This document shows, piece by piece, positions 4,150 to 12,960 of a DNA stretch of 21,050 nt (positions are counted from its first letter, which is position 1; each line of letters starts with the position of its first letter). Under the pieces are notes generated by a model. That model saw nothing but the letters and a program-made list of their open reading frames with translations. It did no database searches and was not told where the DNA came from. A program made the position numbers and the translations under genes. Source of the stretch: a virus; the IMG/VR virus record IMGVR_UViG_3300037300_000163, positions 1 through 21,050 of that record; one strand, written 5' to 3'.

Positions 4150-4326
4150 ATGAACGACATACCCATGACATTCAGCGTAGCGGCGGGCGGAATCATCGCC
4201 GCCTTTTTCGTGATTTCAACGCTGTATGGCATTCGCTTTTGCCAGCAAGGGCGATGGCGGCTTGGGCTGTGCATCCTCGTTTGGTCGGTTGGATACGGCG
4301 GTTTAATCGTTTCCGCCTCAGTCTGA
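4150..4326 (+). CDS. Opposite-strand small protein with two membrane segments
   Basis: This 58-residue reading frame on the plus strand begins MNDIPMTFSVAAGGIIAAFF. It has hydrophobic stretches at about residues 7-27 and 38-57, separated by a basic turn (RFCQQGRWR), so a two-pass hairpin membrane protein is predicted. It lies in the roughly 250-base gap between the gp16-like gene and the tailspike, opposite to all its neighbours, and its stop overlaps the end of the gp16-like gene by nine bases. In-frame TAG two codons upstream rules out a longer form. The ribosome binding site is weak and no clear promoter was found. P22 encodes its opposite-strand superinfection-exclusion membrane protein SieA in the same interval; there is no sequence similarity I can claim. 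The membrane pattern supports a real gene, but it may be unexpressed. Confidence 0.45.
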   Translation: MNDIPMTFSVAAGGIIAAFFVISTLYGIRFCQQGRWRLGLCILVWSVGYGGLIVSASV

Positions 4327-6558
4327 AGCCGCGCCTTCGGTGATGTTGAGACGCAGCGGCGGATACTCCGGGTAAGCGTTGAAACTTTCGTTCAAAGCGT
4401 TGCTTGCCTGAGCGCCGCCCGCACCTGTTACGCCAGCCGTCAGGGCGCTGTTCGAAACCGCGCCCGGCCCTCGAAGCGGAAGCGGTGCAGCAATGCCAGC
4501 CGCCTTCAGAGACGCCTTTGCGCTGCCCGCACTCGCCGCTGCAATCCTTGCGCCAATCGCGCCCGCTGGGCCACCCGTGACCATGCCGAGGCTAGTCATT
4601 GCGGCCTGCCAAGTGTCTTGCATTAGCCGAGAAATGGCGTATCCGGTGCCGCTCGGGTTGGTTGCCTCACGCGGCGGGATAAGGATATCCATTGCGCGTG
4701 AGAATCGGCGCATGGTCATGCGCTCCTCCGCCGAAAACATGACCTTTGAAAGCGCCTCACCCTCGCCGTCGAGGAAATCATTGATGCGCGTTCGCATCTT
4801 GGCTGGCGTGAGGGTTGCGCCCTGATCCGTCTGCGCGACGCGCGCCCAAGTGCCGGATCGGATGTTGTTAAAATCAGCCTCGGGAAGCGCGGCCTTGAGG
4901 CGCGTCGCAACCCGAACGGACGAACCTTTCGTGCCGACCTTAGTCGCGCCCCAAAGGACGTTCGCCACCTCTTGCGGCGTCACATCGTCCTTAACCATCT
5001 TTTCGATCAAGCGGCTTGCGTCGTCCCCGGGCTGCGCCGTGAACGTCTTGCGGAATGCGCTGTATTTACGCCGCGCAATCTTAACCGCCTCTAGAGCCTC
5101 GTCGGAGCCGCTGATAAGCGCGCTGTCAACCGTGTCCTGCGTCCAATCGTCAAACGCTCGCTTGATTTCCTTCAACTCGTAAAGCGCCGCGCCGTCCCCT
5201 TTCACGCGGTTCAACTTTTGCCGCATGTCCTCGATAGCCTCGAAGGAAACGCCGATTGCGCCATCAGGGCCAGCCTGCGCTTTTTCAACGAGCCTTCGAA
5301 TATCGGCAACTGCGCCAGTCGCCGCGCTCGTTGGCGCAAACGATGCCCGAGACAGAGCGTCGTCAACGCGCGCGCCAAGGCCCTCGAATGCGTCAACGGA
5401 AACGGATGTGCTGCCGATTAGCGGGTTTCGATATGCAGCGTCGACGCCCTCCCTCGCAGCCCTCGCCGCAACCTGCACCGCCTCGCCAGTCTGCCCGGCC
5501 AAGTCAAGCGCCGTGCCGTCAGCCCCGCCCAAGCCCCGGCCCAAGCCTTCTGACGCTCGCCGGGTCGCGTCGGTTGCAGCGCTGTCGATGGCCTGCACCG
5601 ATTGAAGCGCCGACCCGCCGCGCGCCGCATTGCGAGACGCCTCCTCATAAGCGCTCTGCGTCACGTCGCCGGTCGCCTGGCCTCGCGTCAGAGGTATGCC
5701 AAACTCGTCAGCCTGCGCCATGCGCGCAACCTCATCCGTCGCGCCGCCCGCCTGCTTCACCCGCGCGGCAAACGCTTGCGCGAACTCGTCGCTAATGGTC
5801 GCCGGGTCAATGCCCGCATCATTAAGCGCACGCCGCCCAGCGTCCGTCAGCGCCCCGTTTTGATATAGCGCCGGGCGGCCCAGCACGGCACGCCAGACTC
5901 GTTGCGCTGCGATTGCAGCCTCACGCCCGATCACGCCGCCAGCCGCTCCGGTAATCGCACCGACGCCCGCGCCTATCGCCCTGTTCGCGCTGCCCTCGCC
6001 ATCCGCGAAGCCATACAGCGCGCCGCCGCCTGCGCCCGTGATCGCCGCACGGCCCATCTGCGCGAGCCTAGTCGCGCCTTGCGCAACTGCACCAGTGCCG
6101 AGCGTAAGCGCCGCTGAGCCAATGCCGCCAGCCGCTTCGCCGATAAAGTCAAGCGTGCCGTATTCATCTGAAAACTGCTTTTGACGGGCGCGTGTGTCGT
6201 TAAGGCTTGCGCTGTATCTCTCGCCAAATGGCCGCTCGTAATTTCCAACGTCGAGCATCCCGCCCGGCCCTTGGCCGATGAGGGCGTCCACCGCCGCTGA
6301 AATCTCGTCACCCGCGCCGAACGTGATGCCCTGCGTAACGCTGCCGACAAGCCCCGTGAACACGTTGGACTTCTTCGGGGCTGGTTCAGTGGGCGCTCCA
6401 CCGTTGGACGTGGACTGGCGAGCGCGTGCAATGTCTACAGGGGCGGGCATACCAAGAAGCTCCTCAGTGATACCCAGGCTAGATGGCGATTGGGCAGGCC
6501 GGGCTTGCGGGCGCGCCGGGCCGAGAAGCTCGTCGGTGATGCTGGTTGCTTCAACCAT
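4318..6558 (-). CDS. Large ejected internal virion protein (P22 gp16 position)
   Basis: The 746-residue product is the last of three probable ejection proteins. The N terminus carries two copies of IT(D/E)ELLG (residues 7-13 and 30-36). A segment with TFGAGDEISAAV (79-90) and FIGEAAGG (138-145) resembles the front of many large phage virion and polyvalent proteins. Residues about 143-213 are rich in Gly and Ala with glycine-zipper spacing (GAGVGAITGAAGGVIG), suited to inserting into a membrane. The middle is mostly helical and charged, and a second hydrophobic stretch lies near the C terminus (MTSLGMVTGGPAGAIGARIA). In P22, gp16 is ejected and helps DNA cross the cell envelope. No lytic transglycosylase or protease motif was seen. 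The start shares a TAATG with the previous gene. The role is inferred from order and composition. Confidence 0.78.
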   Translation of the reverse strand: MVEATSITDELLGPARPQARPAQSPSSLGITEELLGMPAPVDIARARQSTSNGGAPTEPAPKKSNVFTGLVGSVTQGITFGAGDEISAAVDALIGQGPGGMLDVGNYERPFGERYSASLNDTRARQKQFSDEYGTLDFIGEAAGGIGSAALTLGTGAVAQGATRLAQMGRAAITGAGGGALYGFADGEGSANRAIGAGVGAITGAAGGVIGREAAIAAQRVWRAVLGRPALYQNGALTDAGRRALNDAGIDPATISDEFAQAFAARVKQAGGATDEVARMAQADEFGIPLTRGQATGDVTQSAYEEASRNAARGGSALQSVQAIDSAATDATRRASEGLGRGLGGADGTALDLAGQTGEAVQVAARAAREGVDAAYRNPLIGSTSVSVDAFEGLGARVDDALSRASFAPTSAATGAVADIRRLVEKAQAGPDGAIGVSFEAIEDMRQKLNRVKGDGAALYELKEIKRAFDDWTQDTVDSALISGSDEALEAVKIARRKYSAFRKTFTAQPGDDASRLIEKMVKDDVTPQEVANVLWGATKVGTKGSSVRVATRLKAALPEADFNNIRSGTWARVAQTDQGATLTPAKMRTRINDFLDGEGEALSKVMFSAEERMTMRRFSRAMDILIPPREATNPSGTGYAISRLMQDTWQAAMTSLGMVTGGPAGAIGARIAAASAGSAKASLKAAGIAAPLPLRGPGAVSNSALTAGVTGAGGAQASNALNESFNAYPEYPPLRLNITEGAASD

Positions 6559-7949
6559 TAGAGGCCAAACTCCTGTTGCATGGCCGCGCGCACTTGTGCG
6601 CGGATGGCCGCGGCGTCAGTGTAGCCAGCCGCTTGCACTTGCTGTGTGATTTCCAATTCGCGCTGGCGCATTATTCCGGGAATTTCGTCTAGCTGGGGCG
6701 CGCTATCCACAAGATTCCCCCCTTGTATAATTGGCCCGGTATTCCCTTGAGATTTCCAATAATTCAAGCGGACCAGCGAAAGTTTTGCCGACCGAGTAGC
6801 CTCCGCAAGTTTAGCGCCAAATTCTGCGGGGCTGTCACCGTCAAAGATACTTGAGCCAGCGTTAGGCATTTCGCCCGCTATCCGGCCCATCTCCTGCTGA
6901 GACACAGCCGCACCAGCCAAGGCTTTGATCGTGCGGTTAAGGTCTTTGAGCGCCGCCGCTTTAAACGTAGCGAATCTAGCCACCTCTTGCTGTTCTTCCG
7001 GGCTTGCCAAGCCTAACTTGTCTTTCCCCCGCAAAATGGCGTCGTTTAATCGAGTGGGGATCTGTTGATAAGTTTCATCATAAAGCTGCAATGTTCGATT
7101 AAGCCTGTCAATTTGCTCAGCAGTGTCAATCGCGCCCTTATCAAGCTGTGTATTTCCAGACGTGCCAAACCCGCCACCGCCGCTTCCGCCCATTTCAAGA
7201 CTCATAGTGCCGTCAGTATTGGTCTTGACACTCAAGCCTTTTGCCCTCTGGCCTTGGTCAACGACATATCGCCGATACTCGTCAGACCCCGGAGTAAAGC
7301 CCGCTTCTATGGCCAGCGCCCGCGCCTTTGCGAGCGGGTCACTTTCAGGCTTCGGCACGTCAGGAGCTTGGCCGGATAAAATCGAAATCAGCACGCCGAG
7401 GCCCGCTTGATCCGGCACGTTACGCGGCAGATTGCTGACGTCCATACCGTATTGCTCAACAGCCACGCGCAGGCCCTTTTGATATGCCGCCTCTTGCTGC
7501 TCGGGCGGCAAGCGGCTGATTGACGTTAGAATGGCGACTCCTACTTTTTGATTTTGCCTTTTAACGTCGTCGTCCGCAGTCCTTTGAGCCGAAGCCGCCG
7601 ACCGACCCTGCGCGGCAGTGGCGTTCGCCTGCTGGATTTGCCGCCCCTGCCGATTGTATGCCATGGTCGCGTCAAACTCGGTTACGCCGCGGTCAAAGTC
7701 CCGCTGGTCCAAACGATCCTCACGCGAGTTGCCCATTGCGCCAACAGGGTCCAGCATCGCCAGCGCATTGCGTGCGCCGTCGCTGTCAGCGCCGCCGGTC
7801 TGGATGGCTTGCGACAGGGCGTTGCGGGCCTGCCCGAGGCGCGCTTGCTCGGTGCGGGCCTCGTCTTGTGCCCGGAACTCGCGCCCTTGCGCCATGCCCT
7901 GCGTAAACGCGCCGCCGACGTTCGGGAGAAGAAGCGGAGTGATCGCCAT
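6558..7949 (-). CDS. Ejected internal virion protein (P22 gp20 position)
   Basis: This 463-residue protein, close to the length of P22 gp20 (about 470), has a Gln- and Ala-rich helical N-terminal half (about residues 15-130), a Gly-rich linker near 258-275, and a helical C-terminal half. The latter contains FATFKAAALKDLNRTIKALA, then GAAVSQQEMGRI and, later, LVRLNYWKSQG, a pattern I associate with phage internal or DNA-transfer proteins. There is no signal peptide or long hydrophobic segment. Both ends are joined to neighbours by TAATG, so synthesis of the three proteins is probably balanced by coupled translation. By position it should leave the capsid with the DNA; direct sequence similarity to gp20 was not tested. 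Confidence 0.72.
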   Translation of the reverse strand: MAITPLLLPNVGGAFTQGMAQGREFRAQDEARTEQARLGQARNALSQAIQTGGADSDGARNALAMLDPVGAMGNSREDRLDQRDFDRGVTEFDATMAYNRQGRQIQQANATAAQGRSAASAQRTADDDVKRQNQKVGVAILTSISRLPPEQQEAAYQKGLRVAVEQYGMDVSNLPRNVPDQAGLGVLISILSGQAPDVPKPESDPLAKARALAIEAGFTPGSDEYRRYVVDQGQRAKGLSVKTNTDGTMSLEMGGSGGGGFGTSGNTQLDKGAIDTAEQIDRLNRTLQLYDETYQQIPTRLNDAILRGKDKLGLASPEEQQEVARFATFKAAALKDLNRTIKALAGAAVSQQEMGRIAGEMPNAGSSIFDGDSPAEFGAKLAEATRSAKLSLVRLNYWKSQGNTGPIIQGGNLVDSAPQLDEIPGIMRQRELEITQQVQAAGYTDAAAIRAQVRAAMQQEFGL

Positions 7950-8842
7950 TAGAAGCCCATCCCCATTGCCTGACCCGCCTGCCGCGAGAGGTTATTAAAC
8001 CCGTTCGTGATGATGTTGCCTTGACCGATGTAGCCAGAGGCGCGGGCGTTGCCTTGGCCGATCAACGTATTGCTGCCGGTGTTTGCAAAATTCTGACCGA
8101 AGCCCGCAAGCGAATTTGTCGCCGTCTGCCCGCGCCCAGCGCCCGCCGCGAGCCTGTTCATGAACGTGCCGTATTCGTCCGCGGCCATTCCCTGGCCGTA
8201 GCCTTGCAGCGCCTTCATCGTCGCGCCGCTGTTAAGTCCGCCGCGTGCCGCTGCGCTACGCTCGATTGCCTGCCGCCCTTGGGCAACCCGGAACTCATAG
8301 CCCGGCGTCGTGTCAAATCCGCCATAATCGAAATTGAGCGCGTTAAACCCGCCGCCACCCGCCGCGCCGCCGCCCGCATCACCGCCCTGCGATTGTGCGT
8401 CAATGAAGCCCTGAGCGTCCGCCCGCGTGGAGAAGTTCTGATCGCCGACGGCAAACTGCGACGAAGGCCCCGAAGGAACGAAGGTTCTGCGCATTTGCTC
8501 GCCGCCACGGCTGTTCGGCTGAGCCACGTCCTGATAGCTTCCCGCTCCGGGGCGCGCTGCCACTTGGCTTTCGGTGATGGCGAGCGCGTTTTGCCCCGAA
8601 CCGGCCTGCCCCGCCATGCCCGGCTGCGACGCCATCGGTCGAGGCCCAAGCCCCATCTCATAGTCATACGCCGCTTGACTGCGCGCGCCGCTCTCAAGGA
8701 ACGGCTGAATGTTCGCCTGCGTGGCGGCAAACTGCTCGCGTTGAAGGTCAAGCGCCGCTTGCGACGATTGAACCTGAGCGTCGGTCGCTTTGCTTTGCGC
8801 GTTGCTGGCAAAAAGCCCGCTTACAATCTCGCCTAGACACAT
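7949..8842 (-). CDS. Ejected internal virion protein (P22 gp7 position)
   Basis: The 297-residue product starts MCLGEIVSGLFASNAQSK and continues with a Gln- and Ala-rich helix (about 18-50). A Gly-rich stretch (about 152-165) is followed by GYEFRVAQGRQAIERSAAAR and then GGLNSGATMKALQGYGQ. This C-terminal half, up to FNNLSRQAGQAMGMGF, is a conserved pattern in phage DNA-transfer or injection proteins. GGAG seven bases before the ATG sets the start, which overlaps the GNAT gene by ten bases. In P22, gp7 is one of three proteins ejected ahead of the genome. The Cys at position 2 is unusual but does not sit in a typical lipoprotein signal sequence. Confidence 0.75.
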   Translation of the reverse strand: MCLGEIVSGLFASNAQSKATDAQVQSSQAALDLQREQFAATQANIQPFLESGARSQAAYDYEMGLGPRPMASQPGMAGQAGSGQNALAITESQVAARPGAGSYQDVAQPNSRGGEQMRRTFVPSGPSSQFAVGDQNFSTRADAQGFIDAQSQGGDAGGGAAGGGGFNALNFDYGGFDTTPGYEFRVAQGRQAIERSAAARGGLNSGATMKALQGYGQGMAADEYGTFMNRLAAGAGRGQTATNSLAGFGQNFANTGSNTLIGQGNARASGYIGQGNIITNGFNNLSRQAGQAMGMGF

Positions 8843-9225
8843 GATGGTTCTCCGTATGCGATTTTCTGGCGCGTGAACCCCATGCGCTCAAGGGCCGGAC
8901 TTTCGCGCGTGGTCGTGAAATGCGTTGTCGCGCCGTTTTCGTGCGCCCACGATTGAAACGCCTTTAGCAGCCGCAATCCGCTGCCATCGGTTGCGTGCCA
9001 GAACATCTCCCACGCTTGGCGTTCGCTCGGCGCGCTCCACAGCGGGTGGATAAGCCCGCCAATCATCCCGCCCACGCTTAGGAAAACCGCGCCATTGACC
9101 AAGACATGCCGCACGAAGCCGGTGGCGGCGTCAGCGTCAAACGGCGCATTGCTCACCGCCGCGTGGTTGCCGCGACCTAGATCAATGATGCGCGGAATAT
9201 CCTCAGCCGTGGCGCGTCGGATCAT
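8833..9225 (-). CDS. GNAT-family N-acetyltransferase
   Basis: The 130-residue protein follows the GNAT order: an N-terminal IRRATAEDIPRIIDLGR helix, a central beta region (FLSVGGMIGGLIHPLW), a fourth strand with EMFWHATDGSGLRLLKAFQS (about 73-92) holding the acetyl-CoA-binding turn GSG, and a C-terminal SPALERMGF motif where GNAT proteins place their last helix and strand. It would transfer an acetyl group from acetyl-CoA; the substrate is unknown. Similar small GNAT proteins are common among podophage virion genes, and T7 gene 13 is one such case. It lies in the position of P22 gene 14. The start overlaps the preceding stop as ATGA. It could modify a virion protein, or may be a catalytically weak assembly factor. 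Confidence 0.85.
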   Translation of the reverse strand: MIRRATAEDIPRIIDLGRGNHAAVSNAPFDADAATGFVRHVLVNGAVFLSVGGMIGGLIHPLWSAPSERQAWEMFWHATDGSGLRLLKAFQSWAHENGATTHFTTTRESPALERMGFTRQKIAYGEPSCV

Positions 9226-9559: not shown

Positions 9560-9889
9560 TTACTGAAGCGGGACGGACCCGAGGGGCGCGCAAGCCCCGA
9601 AAAGAGAGACTGACGAGGCCGGGTCACCTGCGCCTTGGAATGACACCTGCGCCGAATGCACGCCTGCGCCTTGGAGTGCGACCGCCGGATGCCCCGAGTG
9701 CCCGTATTGAAACGAAACGCCGGGGTTGGTCGCTTGCGTGATGAGCACCGTCGTCGTGGTCAGGCTTGCGCCGCCAACCGCCTGATACAGGTCTTCCAAC
9801 CAGCGTGCATATTGGCGCGTCGGGTATCCCCTGGCGTCCGAGATTGGCGCATTCAGCGACATGGGCGACGGAACTGAACGGCCCGTCAT
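9560..9889 (-). CDS. Small protein with a 12-residue repeat at the tail-needle position
   Basis: The 109-residue product has an N-terminal part (SLNAPISDARGYPTRQYARW, then LEDLYQAVGG) of a type often seen in small proteins after gp10-like genes. From residue 58 it shows a regular 12-residue repeat: Val at 58, 70, 82, 94 and 106, each followed by a small residue and then Phe or Leu (VSF, VAL, VSF, VSL, VPL), with Gly near the fifth position. This suggests stacked short beta strands, perhaps in a trimeric fibre. In P22 the gene after gp10 encodes the tail needle gp26, which is much longer and coiled-coil. The ATG overlaps the gp10-like stop as ATGA. The needle role is inference from position. 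Confidence 0.75.
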   Translation of the reverse strand: MTGRSVPSPMSLNAPISDARGYPTRQYARWLEDLYQAVGGASLTTTTVLITQATNPGVSFQYGHSGHPAVALQGAGVHSAQVSFQGAGDPASSVSLFGACAPLGSVPLQ

Positions 9890-11247
9890 TGCGACGCCAT
9901 GTAGTTGACGCCGATCAAGGGCGCGTCAATCGGGTCCGTGATCCGCAGCCGCATCGAGAAATGGTAGGCGCGGCCAAGCCCGTTCACCCATATCTGCCGC
10001 GAATATTCGCCGAGATTGCCCATGTCGAACTCCCGTTCACCGTCCCAATTCTGCCCGTCGCGGCTAACCGAAACTTGCAGCTTGGGCGTGCGCGCGAGGT
10101 TGGTGCGGCCCTGCCCGAAGCCGATTTTCACCTTGGAGACCGTGACCCAATCGCCGCCGCCGTCAATCGGCAGGCTGATGGCCTCCCGCTCGATAGCCAG
10201 CCCGCCGTCGGTTAGACCGCCGAGGGTGTGAACAAAGCCGTCAGTCGCTCCGATAACCTCTCGCCCGTCCCATATCGTGGTGCAGGTGGCAATCCACGGC
10301 AAATCACCGATTCCGCTTGACCGCTCGTGCCATAGCCCGCTGGCGAGGTCGTAGATAAGCGACGGCTGCCCGTTGATCCGCACGCAGATGAACTTGTGGC
10401 CGCGATCCTCAAGCGAGAACAGCCGCACGTCGTCGGTGTATGCCAGGTTCTTCAGGATCGTCTCAGCGAGCGACGTTGACAGCCGTTGCGGCGAACTGCC
10501 GGGGGCGACGCGATAGACCACCCGGTCGTCGCCGACGAACCACACGCCCGCGTCTGACGCGCACACCGCGTTTGCAAAGGCAAGCCCGCGCTCGAACGTG
10601 CCGCCGCTGCGCCGGGCGAAAGGAAAGTCCGCGCTGCCCGTGTTGCTCCAAAGCTCAATCGTCCGCGTGCCGAACAGGAACAGGTCTTGGTGATCCACGA
10701 AGCCGCGCACGAGTCCATCAGGCCGCGCCTCGGCGCTTGCAAAGTCGGCGGCGTTAATCGTGGTTGCGTCGCTTAGCGCCGACACGCTGAACCGCTGCCC
10801 GTCTTGCTCGAACAGGATGATGTATCCCGAGGTCGCGCCGACGCTGCCCACGTCGCTAAATGCGCCCGGCGCTGGCGTGCTTAGCGCGGTTCCGTTCCAC
10901 ACGTAATAGACGCCACCCGCAGCTAACGCTACATCAAGCCCGTTGCCCGCTATCGTGGTTTTGGCGCTGTCGTTAATGTCCCCGAGCGCCGTTGCCGTGC
11001 CGCTCGTTGCGATGCTCCACAGCTTGCCGCCCGCCGCCGCATAGAGCGCCGAGGACTGCGCGTAGATAGCCCGCACAGGCCCGCCTAGCTGGTCGCTGAG
11101 CGCCGTCAGGCCCGACGATGGCAGGAGCAGCAGCCGCCCCGCGCCACCGTCAGGAAACGGCTCCGCGAACAGGTTGAGCAACCGCTCGCCGCTATGCTCC
11201 GGCACGGAGCCGCCGACCGATTGGCGCGCAAATGTGACATACGGCAT
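9886..11247 (-). CDS. P22 gp10-like tail hub / packaged-DNA stabilisation protein
   Basis: This 453-residue protein is close to the length of P22 gp10 (about 470). It opens with QSVGGSVPEHSGERLLNLFA and continues with repeated beta-propeller-like segments (SSALYAAAGGKLWSI, GGVYYVWNGTAL, DLFLFGTRTIELWSNTG, DAGVWFVGDDRVVYRV), the pattern of the family to which gp10 belongs. In P22, gp10 binds below gp4 and helps close the portal so that packaged DNA does not leak. Here it follows the gp4-like gene with one gene between. Its start shares TAATG with that gene. Family assignment is by recognised pattern and synteny. Confidence 0.88.
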   Translation of the reverse strand: MPYVTFARQSVGGSVPEHSGERLLNLFAEPFPDGGAGRLLLLPSSGLTALSDQLGGPVRAIYAQSSALYAAAGGKLWSIATSGTATALGDINDSAKTTIAGNGLDVALAAGGVYYVWNGTALSTPAPGAFSDVGSVGATSGYIILFEQDGQRFSVSALSDATTINAADFASAEARPDGLVRGFVDHQDLFLFGTRTIELWSNTGSADFPFARRSGGTFERGLAFANAVCASDAGVWFVGDDRVVYRVAPGSSPQRLSTSLAETILKNLAYTDDVRLFSLEDRGHKFICVRINGQPSLIYDLASGLWHERSSGIGDLPWIATCTTIWDGREVIGATDGFVHTLGGLTDGGLAIEREAISLPIDGGGDWVTVSKVKIGFGQGRTNLARTPKLQVSVSRDGQNWDGEREFDMGNLGEYSRQIWVNGLGRAYHFSMRLRITDPIDAPLIGVNYMASQ

Positions 11248-12290
11248 TAGTCGCCCCCTCGGATATAGCGCAGCGCGGCGTCAAGCTCGGGGTCGCCGCT
11301 CGATTCGTCGCCCTGCATTCCGCGCGACGCCGCGCCCGCTCCGACGGCAAGCGGAACGGCGGCACTCAGGTTGGAAAGGTTTTTCAGGCGAGGGTCAAAG
11401 CGCGCGAACCGGCTGCGGATGTTGGAGGGGTCCATTATTGAACGCTGATCCGCGACTGATACGCCGTCAAAGCCACGCCGTGAAAGCTCCTCTCCAAAGC
11501 CACGGGCCATGTCGTCATCGTAAAGGTTTTTCGCGGCGCTTGCGGCCTCCCGTGCTTCCATCGTGGCGGGTCGATTTGTGGCGACGAGCGGAAGGACTCT
11601 GGACGATGGCCGATCGGCGGGAATTTTTGGGTGCGGCTCTCCAGCAAAGACGTTTGCCATACGCGGGTTGTTTGTGGAGTAGATGCCCGGCCCAACCTTC
11701 CCTCGCTGGCTTGGCCGCAAGGCTTGAAAGTCAGCGCTCGCCCCCGTCCCATGATAAAGCGGGGTATCCACGTCGAAGCCCATCTCCCTCGCGCGCGCCA
11801 TCCGCGAAGCCTCGTCCATTGCCATATCCGCGCCAGTCTCGCCGCGCTCATAGGCGTTAAACAGCCGCGCCGGGTCAGCCGCCGCAAGCATATCGTCGGT
11901 CACTTCACCGGCGCGACCCTCGCGCAGCATTCGAACCACCGCGTCCGTCGCATCATCCGCAAGCCGGTTCACGCCGCTTACGCTGCCCGGCAAGAACACC
12001 GACCCGAGCGCCGCCGCCATTGTGCCGCCCGCCAAAAGCGCGTTGACCGGGTCGCGCGCTTGCATCAGGTCGCCCGAAGCGCGCACCGCGTCCACGAAGT
12101 CCTGCCCCGGCGAAATCATCGCCAGTGCGTTGCCCACGCTCGCGCCAAATCGCGACAACTCCGGCCCGGCATAATATCGCGCCGTGTCGGCGACCGGTTC
12201 AAGCTGGCGCTCTAGCCAAGCGCTGCGCTGCTGGCCTGTGCTGCTGGCGAGGGCGTTGATTCCTTGAAGCAAGGCGTCAAGGCGGTCCAT
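11247..12290 (-). CDS. Virion-region protein with an ADP-ribosyltransferase-like domain
   Basis: The 347-residue product carries the motifs of phage ADP-ribosyltransferase (ART) domains of the polyvalent-protein type: LYHGTG at 178-183, GIYSTNNPRMANVFA at 202-216 and a closing IMDPSNIRSRFARFDP at 285-300. H180 and Y204 fit the first two positions of the H-Y-E triad. The third is unclear: the residue aligned by eye is Q282 (next to D281), so activity is uncertain. Residues 84-104 and 308-322 are hydrophobic and could aid membrane passage. TAATG overlaps join it to the gp4-like and gp10-like genes, so it is expressed with virion proteins. An enzyme carried in the particle and delivered with the DNA is a reasonable inference; an inactive structural relic is the main alternative. 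Confidence 0.75.
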   Translation of the reverse strand: MDRLDALLQGINALASSTGQQRSAWLERQLEPVADTARYYAGPELSRFGASVGNALAMISPGQDFVDAVRASGDLMQARDPVNALLAGGTMAAALGSVFLPGSVSGVNRLADDATDAVVRMLREGRAGEVTDDMLAAADPARLFNAYERGETGADMAMDEASRMARAREMGFDVDTPLYHGTGASADFQALRPSQRGKVGPGIYSTNNPRMANVFAGEPHPKIPADRPSSRVLPLVATNRPATMEAREAASAAKNLYDDDMARGFGEELSRRGFDGVSVADQRSIMDPSNIRSRFARFDPRLKNLSNLSAAVPLAVGAGAASRGMQGDESSGDPELDAALRYIRGGD

Positions 12291-12685
12291 TAGTAAATCG
12301 ACCTCTGCCCGGCCCAGTATTGCTGCGGCATAACCTTCAAGCCCTCGTCAACCACCAACGCCGCCTGCACATGATAGCGAGCCATGATCGCCTGCCGCGC
12401 GCGCCGCACGTCATTCGGATTCGGATGGCGCACGCCGTAATTCGACGCGACGTGATCCGCCGTCAAATCCGCGATTGCGCCCTCAAATTCTGCTGGCAGG
12501 TTGAAGGTGTCCGCTGCCCTTAGCGTGGTGTGCGTCAGGTCAGCGCCGCGCGCCTTGAACCCGTGCATCACTTCGTTCATCGCCACGAGCGTCAACGCCG
12601 CGTCTGCGGCCTCCGGCTCCTGCGAAATCGGCGAGACGCCAATCCGCAACAGCGCGCGCCCGACAATTTCCGATGCAAGCGTCAT
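12290..12685 (-). CDS. P22 gp4-like tail accessory factor
   Basis: The 131-residue helical protein begins MTLASEIVGRALLRIGVSPI and contains ALTLVAMNEVMHGFKARGAD and FEGAIADLTADHVASNYG, a pattern shared by gp4-like head-completion proteins. In P22, gp4 (about 166 residues) forms a ring under the portal and is the first tail part added after packaging; gp10 then binds it. The start at 12685 makes an ATGA overlap with the upstream gene and has GGAG eleven bases before it; a longer frame upstream is rejected because it overlaps that gene. The protein ends in an aromatic tail (QQYWAGQRSIY). Confidence 0.85.
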   Translation of the reverse strand: MTLASEIVGRALLRIGVSPISQEPEAADAALTLVAMNEVMHGFKARGADLTHTTLRAADTFNLPAEFEGAIADLTADHVASNYGVRHPNPNDVRRARQAIMARYHVQAALVVDEGLKVMPQQYWAGQRSIY

Positions 12686-12933
12686 GGGCGCGCCTCCGCA
12701 ATCGCTGCGCGCAGCCGCGCCGAACCCCACCGCTTGTCAACGTCAACGCCAAGCGCTTCCGCCTCCGCGATAAGCGCCGCCTTTCCGGTTTGGGACGCGA
12801 CCGGCGCGACCGGCTCCACCACGCCAACGCGCGCCGGGCTATCAACCCACCCGACAGGGACGGACGCAGCGTCGTCAAATATCTCGCCATGCACCACGCC
12901 ATCGCGCAGCGTGTAGGCCCAGGTTCTCGACAT
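12682..12933 (-). CDS. Small protein with a C-terminal SAP/HeH-like helix motif
   Basis: The 83-residue product begins MSRTWAYTLRDGVVHGEIFD, a short beta-rich part, then a Pro/Val linker. Its C terminus, ALIAEAEALGVDVDKRWGSA followed by RLRAAIAEA, is the helix-extended-loop-helix pattern of SAP/HeH-like motifs often found at the ends of phage head-completion or small structural proteins, which may touch DNA or other proteins. GGAGGTG shortly before the ATG is one of the strongest ribosome binding sites here and sets the start. It lies between the coat and gp4-like genes, so a head-completion role is likely. Confidence 0.78.
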   Translation of the reverse strand: MSRTWAYTLRDGVVHGEIFDDAASVPVGWVDSPARVGVVEPVAPVASQTGKAALIAEAEALGVDVDKRWGSARLRAAIAEARP

Positions 12934-12960
12934 AGCGTCACCTCCGCGCAATTAGAGCGA

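What the first reader, a model, noticed from the sequence alone, without database searches (positions are those of the whole stretch)
11247..12290. ADP-ribosyltransferase-like gene placed between gp4-like and gp10-like tail genes
P22 has no gene of this kind between genes 4 and 10. Here a compact 347-residue protein with ART motifs (YHGT, GIYSTNNP, closing DPSNIRSRFARFDP) is joined to both neighbours by TAATG overlaps. Two hydrophobic stretches would suit delivery through the envelope. It may be an effector packed in the virion and released into the host at infection, as T4 does with Alt. The apparent Gln at the expected catalytic Glu position is a second point of interest: it may be inactive or use another acidic residue.
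Basis: partly seen in the sequence, partly recalled or inferred. Interest (0 to 1): 0.65.

Follow-up and report, generated by a model that had tools for sequence, protein, structure and literature searches.

The report
Swappable ADP-ribosyltransferase-like gene in podovirus
A short-tailed phage carries, among the genes that build its head-tail connector, an ADP-ribosyltransferase-like protein whose relatives keep the same two ends but swap the enzyme-like middle, which suggests an interchangeable effector that the phage may carry into the cell.

Summary
The gene is real: minus strand 11247-12290, 347 aa, joined by TAATG overlaps to a gp4-like and a gp10-like gene in a P22-type head/tail cluster. 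The ADP-ribosyltransferase (ART) reading holds at the level of fold and homology. PF18760 ART-PolyVal hits it below threshold (E 0.003), but 37 of 60 related cores hit that family, best 1e-10. An AlphaFold2 model of the core (pLDDT 79) finds ART proteins in the PDB. The top match is an ejectosome protein solved inside the podovirus A4 virion.

At least 144 IMG/VR loci encode relatives, mostly beside terminase, portal, adaptor or gp10 genes. They share a linker and a closing tail but swap the ART core. Two phages about 92-100% identical on both sides have unrelated cores. No immunity gene travels with the core.

Gln282 at the catalytic Glu position is not decay peculiar to this gene. Two divergent relatives also have Gln, most of the family lacks Glu, and cores with Thr there are under purifying selection.

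Packaging and injection remain inferred. ART effectors in phage structural modules are published. The fixed-joint core swapping and relaxed third residue are the new parts.

The parts
11247..12290 (-). ART-like gene, 347 aa (stop codon included)
   Evidence: homologues
11958..12290 (-). N-terminal helical region, residues 1-111, with one borderline hydrophobic stretch (82-100); shared with relatives such as L051, L055 and L070
   Evidence: tblastn matches start at query residues 8-19; helices in a low-confidence model; hydropathy
11781..11957 (-). conserved family linker, residues 112-170 (LREGRA.EVTDDM...TGADMxMDEASRMARA)
   Evidence: alignments; mean pairwise identity 56%
11430..11780 (-). 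variable ART core, residues 171-287
   Evidence: PF18760 hits, AF2 model and fold search; mean pairwise identity 26%
11751..11753 (-). predicted catalytic His180 codon
   Evidence: His in 63 of 71 aligned family cores
11679..11681 (-). predicted Tyr204 codon (strand 2)
   Evidence: Tyr 35, Trp 11, Phe 9 of 71
11445..11447 (-). Gln282 codon at the third catalytic position
   Evidence: E 23, S 12, V 10, T 6, Q 3 and others in 64 unique cores
11352..11429 (-). conserved closing tail, residues 288-313 (PSNIRSRFARFDPRLKNLSNLSAAVP)
   Evidence: RS.FARFDPRL invariant in 71 sequences selected by that motif, and invariant in the 60-member alignment
12288..12292 (-). TAATG overlap with the gp4-like gene
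11245..11249 (-). TAATG overlap with the gp10-like gene
12290..12730 (-). gp4-like (head-tail connector) gene upstream
   Evidence: position between coat and gp10; weak phrog_394 hit
9886..11247 (-). gp10-like head closure Hc3 gene downstream
   Evidence: phrog_578 E 3e-76
4318..8842 (-). probable ejection-protein genes (297 aa gp7-like, 463 aa, 746 aa): the delivery route that a packaged effector would need
   Evidence: phrog_598 'DNA ejection' E 1e-30; phrog_5880 E 6e-18, unknown function

Best explanation
The gene encodes a late-expressed, ART-fold effector of a P22-type podovirus. Its helical N-terminus and the conserved linker and tail form a constant frame. The ART core in between is exchanged by recombination between phages at fixed joints. 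The protein is made together with the connector proteins through overlapping start and stop codons, probably enters the particle near the portal or ejection proteins, and is released into the host with the DNA. There it would bind NAD+ and modify a host target. With Gln instead of Glu at the third position it would act, if at all, as a weak or substrate-assisted mono-ADP-ribosyltransferase, or only as an NAD+ or target binder. Shown here: gene, predicted fold, family, context and core swapping among relatives. Inferred: packaging, injection, activity and target.
For: ART-PolyVal hit on the window protein E 0.003, on its isolate homologue E 8e-4, and on 37 of 60 family cores, best 1e-10. Core model pLDDT 78.7. 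PDB fold matches are mainly KptA/Tpt1, PARP13, PARP10, tankyrase, ExoA and MbcT at Z 5-6. The best match is cyanophage A4 pre-ejectosome chain 9k3a_B (Foldseek probability 0.99; Z 7.3, rmsd 4.2 over 125 residues), whose sequence carries YHGT at 1425 and GTYFSK at 1446. BFVD matches include many phage ART-PolyVal proteins (E 1e-10 to 1e-3). Downstream neighbours of relatives: 27 of 51 virion structural, 7 portal, 5 head-tail adaptor; upstream: terminase large subunit, portal or head closure. Core swapping: L063 vs L055 DNA 92-100%, then about 30% across the core, then 81-100%. Purifying selection on cores, dN/dS mostly 0.05-0.23, including 0.07-0.12 for cores with Thr at the third position.
Against: No virion proteomics for this phage or for its isolate relative. 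The window protein alone misses Pfam's gathering score (18.7 vs 31.2). The A4 match has Z below 8 and a Foldseek E of 0.023, and sequence kinship with A4 is weak (E 0.006, probability 6%). Gln282 is not the acidic residue described for ART-PolyVal (PMC5512222). No close pair of Gln members was available for a selection test.
Confidence: 0.55

Rival explanations
1. It is an ART effector made late in the infected cell and acting there (host takeover or exclusion of other phages), not packaged in the virion.
For: No packaging signal is known for it. T4 ModA and ModB are ART precedents that act after synthesis in the cell (PMC9503650).
Against: The family sits with terminase, portal, adaptor and gp10 genes across lineages, and the best fold match is a virion ejectosome protein.
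Confidence: 0.2
2. It is a structural or accessory connector or ejection protein whose ART-like core has lost enzymatic activity and serves as a binding or scaffold domain.
For: Third residue not conserved (Glu in 23 of 64 unique cores). The A4 ejectosome domain also lacks Glu there (TTLVINP).
Against: His180 kept in 63 of 71 and an aromatic residue at 204 in most. Rapid core exchange with constant neighbours fits an effector better than a scaffold. P22-like relatives with a gp10 gene lack an ART gene between gp4 and gp10, so it is dispensable there.
Confidence: 0.2
3. It is an antibacterial polymorphic toxin with a cognate immunity gene, as proposed for MuF toxins.
For: Constant frame with swapped catalytic cores.
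Against: TAATG overlaps leave no room for an adjacent immunity gene. In L055 and L063 the cores are unrelated but the next genes are nearly identical. No MuF domain was found.
Confidence: 0.05

Closest known systems
ART-PolyVal (Pfam PF18760), ART domains of phage polyvalent proteins (Iyer et al. 2017, PMC5512222)
   Same: YHGT strand-1 His, strand-2 Tyr, closing (D/N)PxxIRS motif, location among late structural genes; relatives carry polyvalent modules such as LPD23
   Different: Below the gathering score; Gln instead of the acidic third residue; compact protein with a single recognisable domain
Gp6 (URC15508) of Octadecabacter Antarctic DB virus 2, a podovirus with a P22-type neck (PMC9239159)
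   Same: Same linker, ART core with Gln at the third position, and same tail; next to a head-tail adaptor gene
   Different: 493 aa with an extra middle module; annotated only as hypothetical; gene order differs
ORF27 of Anabaena phage A-4L, PDB 9k3a chain B (pre-ejectosome)
   Same: YHGT...GTYFSKS ART-like domain in a podovirus; best fold match; also lacks Glu at the third position
   Different: 1717 aa, no sequence similarity detected outside the core; no Pfam ART hit
T4 Alt
   Same: Phage ART gene among virion genes; the model for an injected ART
   Different: Alt belongs to the R-S-E ART clade (PMC5512222), is larger and acts on RNA polymerase; no sequence kinship found here
MuF polymorphic toxins (PMC5576092)
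   Same: Constant phage-structural part joined to an exchangeable effector domain, including ARTs
   Different: No MuF domain; the exchanged core is internal, between a constant linker and a constant tail; no immunity gene

Membership tests
ART-PolyVal (PF18760) | Profile score above Pfam's gathering threshold | tested here: not met
   18.7 bits full length and 20.5 bits for the core against 31.2; relative L114 passes with 35.0
ART-PolyVal (PF18760) | ART fold | tested here: met
   Core model pLDDT 78.7; matches dominated by ART proteins in PDB at Z 5-7 and by ART-PolyVal proteins in BFVD; prediction only
ART-PolyVal (PF18760) | His in strand 1 and Tyr in strand 2 | tested here: met
   His180 and Tyr204, aligned with the family
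ART-PolyVal (PF18760) | Acidic residue in strand 5 (Asp in PMC5512222) | tested here: not met
   Gln282; also Gln in L001 and L046
Polyvalent protein | Two or more domains of disparate activity in one polypeptide | tested here: not met
   Only the ART core is recognised in the 347 aa; longer relatives do carry further domains, e.g. L063 with LPD23 and L093 with VanY
T4 Alt-like ART | R-S-E active site | tested here: not met
   Motif is H-Y-Q
MuF polymorphic toxin | N-terminal MuF domain | tested here: not met
   No MuF hit in Pfam or PHROGs
Virion-packaged, injected ART effector | Protein present in particles and delivered to the host | not testable with these tools
   Only gene context and the fold match to a virion protein

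The most novel reading that the evidence does not exclude
Podoviruses and related phages hold one dedicated locus beside the connector genes where a delivery frame (N-terminus, linker, tail) is constant and the ART core is replaced at fixed joints, without immunity genes and without need of the catalytic Glu: an interchangeable injected host-modifying effector.
Probability: 0.4. Interest if true: 0.65.

Novelty: new variant of a known kind. Interest (0 to 1): 0.42.

Why it matters
If the frame is a packaging and ejection signal, it would show how small effectors are loaded into podovirus heads, and would let many ART cores be recognised and compared by what lies between two conserved joints. 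Core swapping at an otherwise constant locus points to selection by the host, as with polymorphic toxins. The loss of the catalytic Glu in most cores, under purifying selection where it could be tested, makes the question of what these ART folds do directly testable.

Tried and rejected
A full-length AlphaFold2 model with 18 sequences was poor (pLDDT 51.9) and was not used for fold claims. A single-protein scan of viral contigs found no relative; the alignment-based scans did. The genome-contig scan found nothing, plasmids nothing, and no solved structure matched convincingly by sequence. PADLOC gave only a chance-level hit. PARP, ExoA, KptA and MbcT are each compatible folds at Z 5-6, but Z differences below 1 are ties, so no single one is claimed as nearest. 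D281 as a substitute acidic residue was rejected: L046 has Gly and L001 has Val at that place. A chance antisense ORF was rejected on homology. The paper on cyanophage A4 (doi 10.1073/pnas.2423403122) is not held, so whether its authors named the ART-like domain is unknown. A literature search for an H-Y-Q ART found nothing. That non-Glu ARTs can still act through the substrate (PARP10) is from general knowledge, not tested here.

Full report
Observation. The gene lies on the minus strand at 11247-12290 and encodes 347 residues. It overlaps both neighbours by TAATG. The window is a 21,050-base virus record with a P22-type late cluster: terminase, portal (P22_portal, E 1e-189), scaffold, coat (P22_CoatProtein, E 5e-51), a gp4-like gene, this gene, a gp10-like head-closure gene, an acetyltransferase-like gene and DNA-ejection genes.

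Homology. The protein itself scores only 18.7 bits against ART-PolyVal (E 0.003, cut-off 31.2). One isolated phage has a homologue, gp6 of Octadecabacter Antarctic DB virus 2 (40% identity over 116-307), a podovirus with a P22-type neck (PMC9239159), again with a sub-threshold ART-PolyVal hit. An alignment of these two found 22 IMG/VR loci; a wider alignment found at least 144, of which 80 were fetched. Of 60 aligned cores, 37 hit ART-PolyVal at E 0.05 or better, best 1e-10. Some full-length relatives pass the threshold or carry polyvalent modules: L114 ART-PolyVal 35.0 bits; L063 LPD23, E 3e-22; L093 VanY.

Fold. With 60 cores the AlphaFold2 model of residues 112-320 reached pLDDT 78.7 and pTM 0.65. 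VIA-align rows at Z 5-6 are ART-superfamily proteins: KptA/Tpt1, PARP13, PARP10, tankyrases, ExoA, MbcT. The first row, in both Foldseek and VIA-align, is 9k3a_B, from the pre-ejectosome of cyanophage A4 (probability 0.99; Z 7.3 over 125 residues). That chain is ORF27 of Anabaena phage A-4L (1717 of 1717 residues matched), and it reads SLYHGT at 1423 and GTYFSK at 1446. Profile alignment pairs exactly these motifs, weakly (E 0.006). Z values below 8 need caution, but the sequence motif and the fold point the same way. In BFVD, 40 phage proteins match at E below 0.001, many named ART-PolyVal.

Anatomy of the family. Four parts recur: a variable N-terminal part, a conserved linker (LLREGRA.EVTDDM...TG.DMPMD..SRMARA), a variable core, and a tail in which RS.FARFDPRL is invariant. 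Mean identity over 150 random pairs is 56% for the linker, 26% for the core and 54% for the tail; linker and tail motifs also guided the search, which favours members that keep them. At DNA level, L063 and L055 are 92-100% identical through the gp10-like gene, N-terminus and linker, about 30% across the core, and 81-100% again in the tail and following genes; L063 also has an extra insert of about 800 bases before the linker. L001, L049 and L050 show the same pattern. This is exchange at fixed joints. The genes after the swapped cores stay the same, so no cognate immunity gene moves along.

Context. Immediate downstream neighbours of 51 relatives include 27 matching a virion structural family (phrog_2941), 7 portal and 5 head-tail adaptor. 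Upstream neighbours of 53 include terminase large subunit (12 by phrog_2), portal (11) and head closure (4). Among portal relatives of the window that carry a gp10-like gene, none shows an ART gene between gp4 and gp10, though L010 and L013 carry other ART-like proteins between portal and scaffold.

The Gln. Position 282 is six residues before the conserved Pro. In 64 unique cores it is Glu 23, Ser 12, Val 10, Thr 6, Gln 3, His 3 and others (alignment uncertainty is greatest for the Val and Ser groups). Gln occurs in the window, in DB virus 2 and in L046, whose cores are at most 44% identical to the window's in pairwise alignment. A conserved acidic neighbour is absent. Cores with Thr there have dN/dS 0.07-0.12 (L122, L124, L131) and cores with Glu 0.05-0.23; one Ser pair with few changes gives 0.40. 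So lack of Glu does not by itself mean decay in this family; this was not testable in the Gln group itself.

Interpretation. ARTs near phage head genes, predicted to be packaged and injected, are published (PMC5512222, PMC9503650), as are phage polymorphic toxins built on MuF (PMC5576092). The present gene fits that idea and is best called a new variant: a compact protein with a non-acidic third residue and an internal, exchangeable ART core between constant joints. Packaging, injection, NAD+ use and target are inferences.

Noticed in passing
window 8833-9225 (-): Acetyltransferase-like gene (phrog_1249, E 4e-11) in the tail/ejection cluster; DB virus 2 also has an acetyltransferase (gp16) in its late cluster.
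   Followed up: no
window 12682-12951 and 12290-12730 (-): The gp4-like ORF probably starts at an internal ATG near 12685 (MTLASEIVGRALLRIGV) and overlaps the stop of the upstream 89-aa ORF, so the listed GTG start at 12730 is likely wrong.
   Followed up: no
L010:10934-12925, L013:12854-14323: P22-like relatives carry different ART-like proteins (HGTDVEF / HGSPHTFDRF motifs) between portal and scaffold genes: independent placement of ARTs in the same cluster.
   Followed up: partly
L001:2752-4233: The middle part of DB virus 2 gp6 reads like a ParB/sulfiredoxin-type motif (DGRHRAIAA) before the linker; L049 and L050 have GNAT-like modules at the same place, so the middle module seems to be exchanged too.
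   Followed up: partly
L133:20116-25269 (Anabaena phage A-4L ORF27): A solved pre-ejectosome protein carries an ART-like YHGT...GTYF domain that Pfam does not detect.
   Followed up: partly
L132 (PQ492659.1, Limnohabitans phage DC33): Filed under Inoviridae although its 39-kb genome with a 9-kb gene holding an ART-like region looks like a tailed phage; probable taxonomy error in the record.
   Followed up: no
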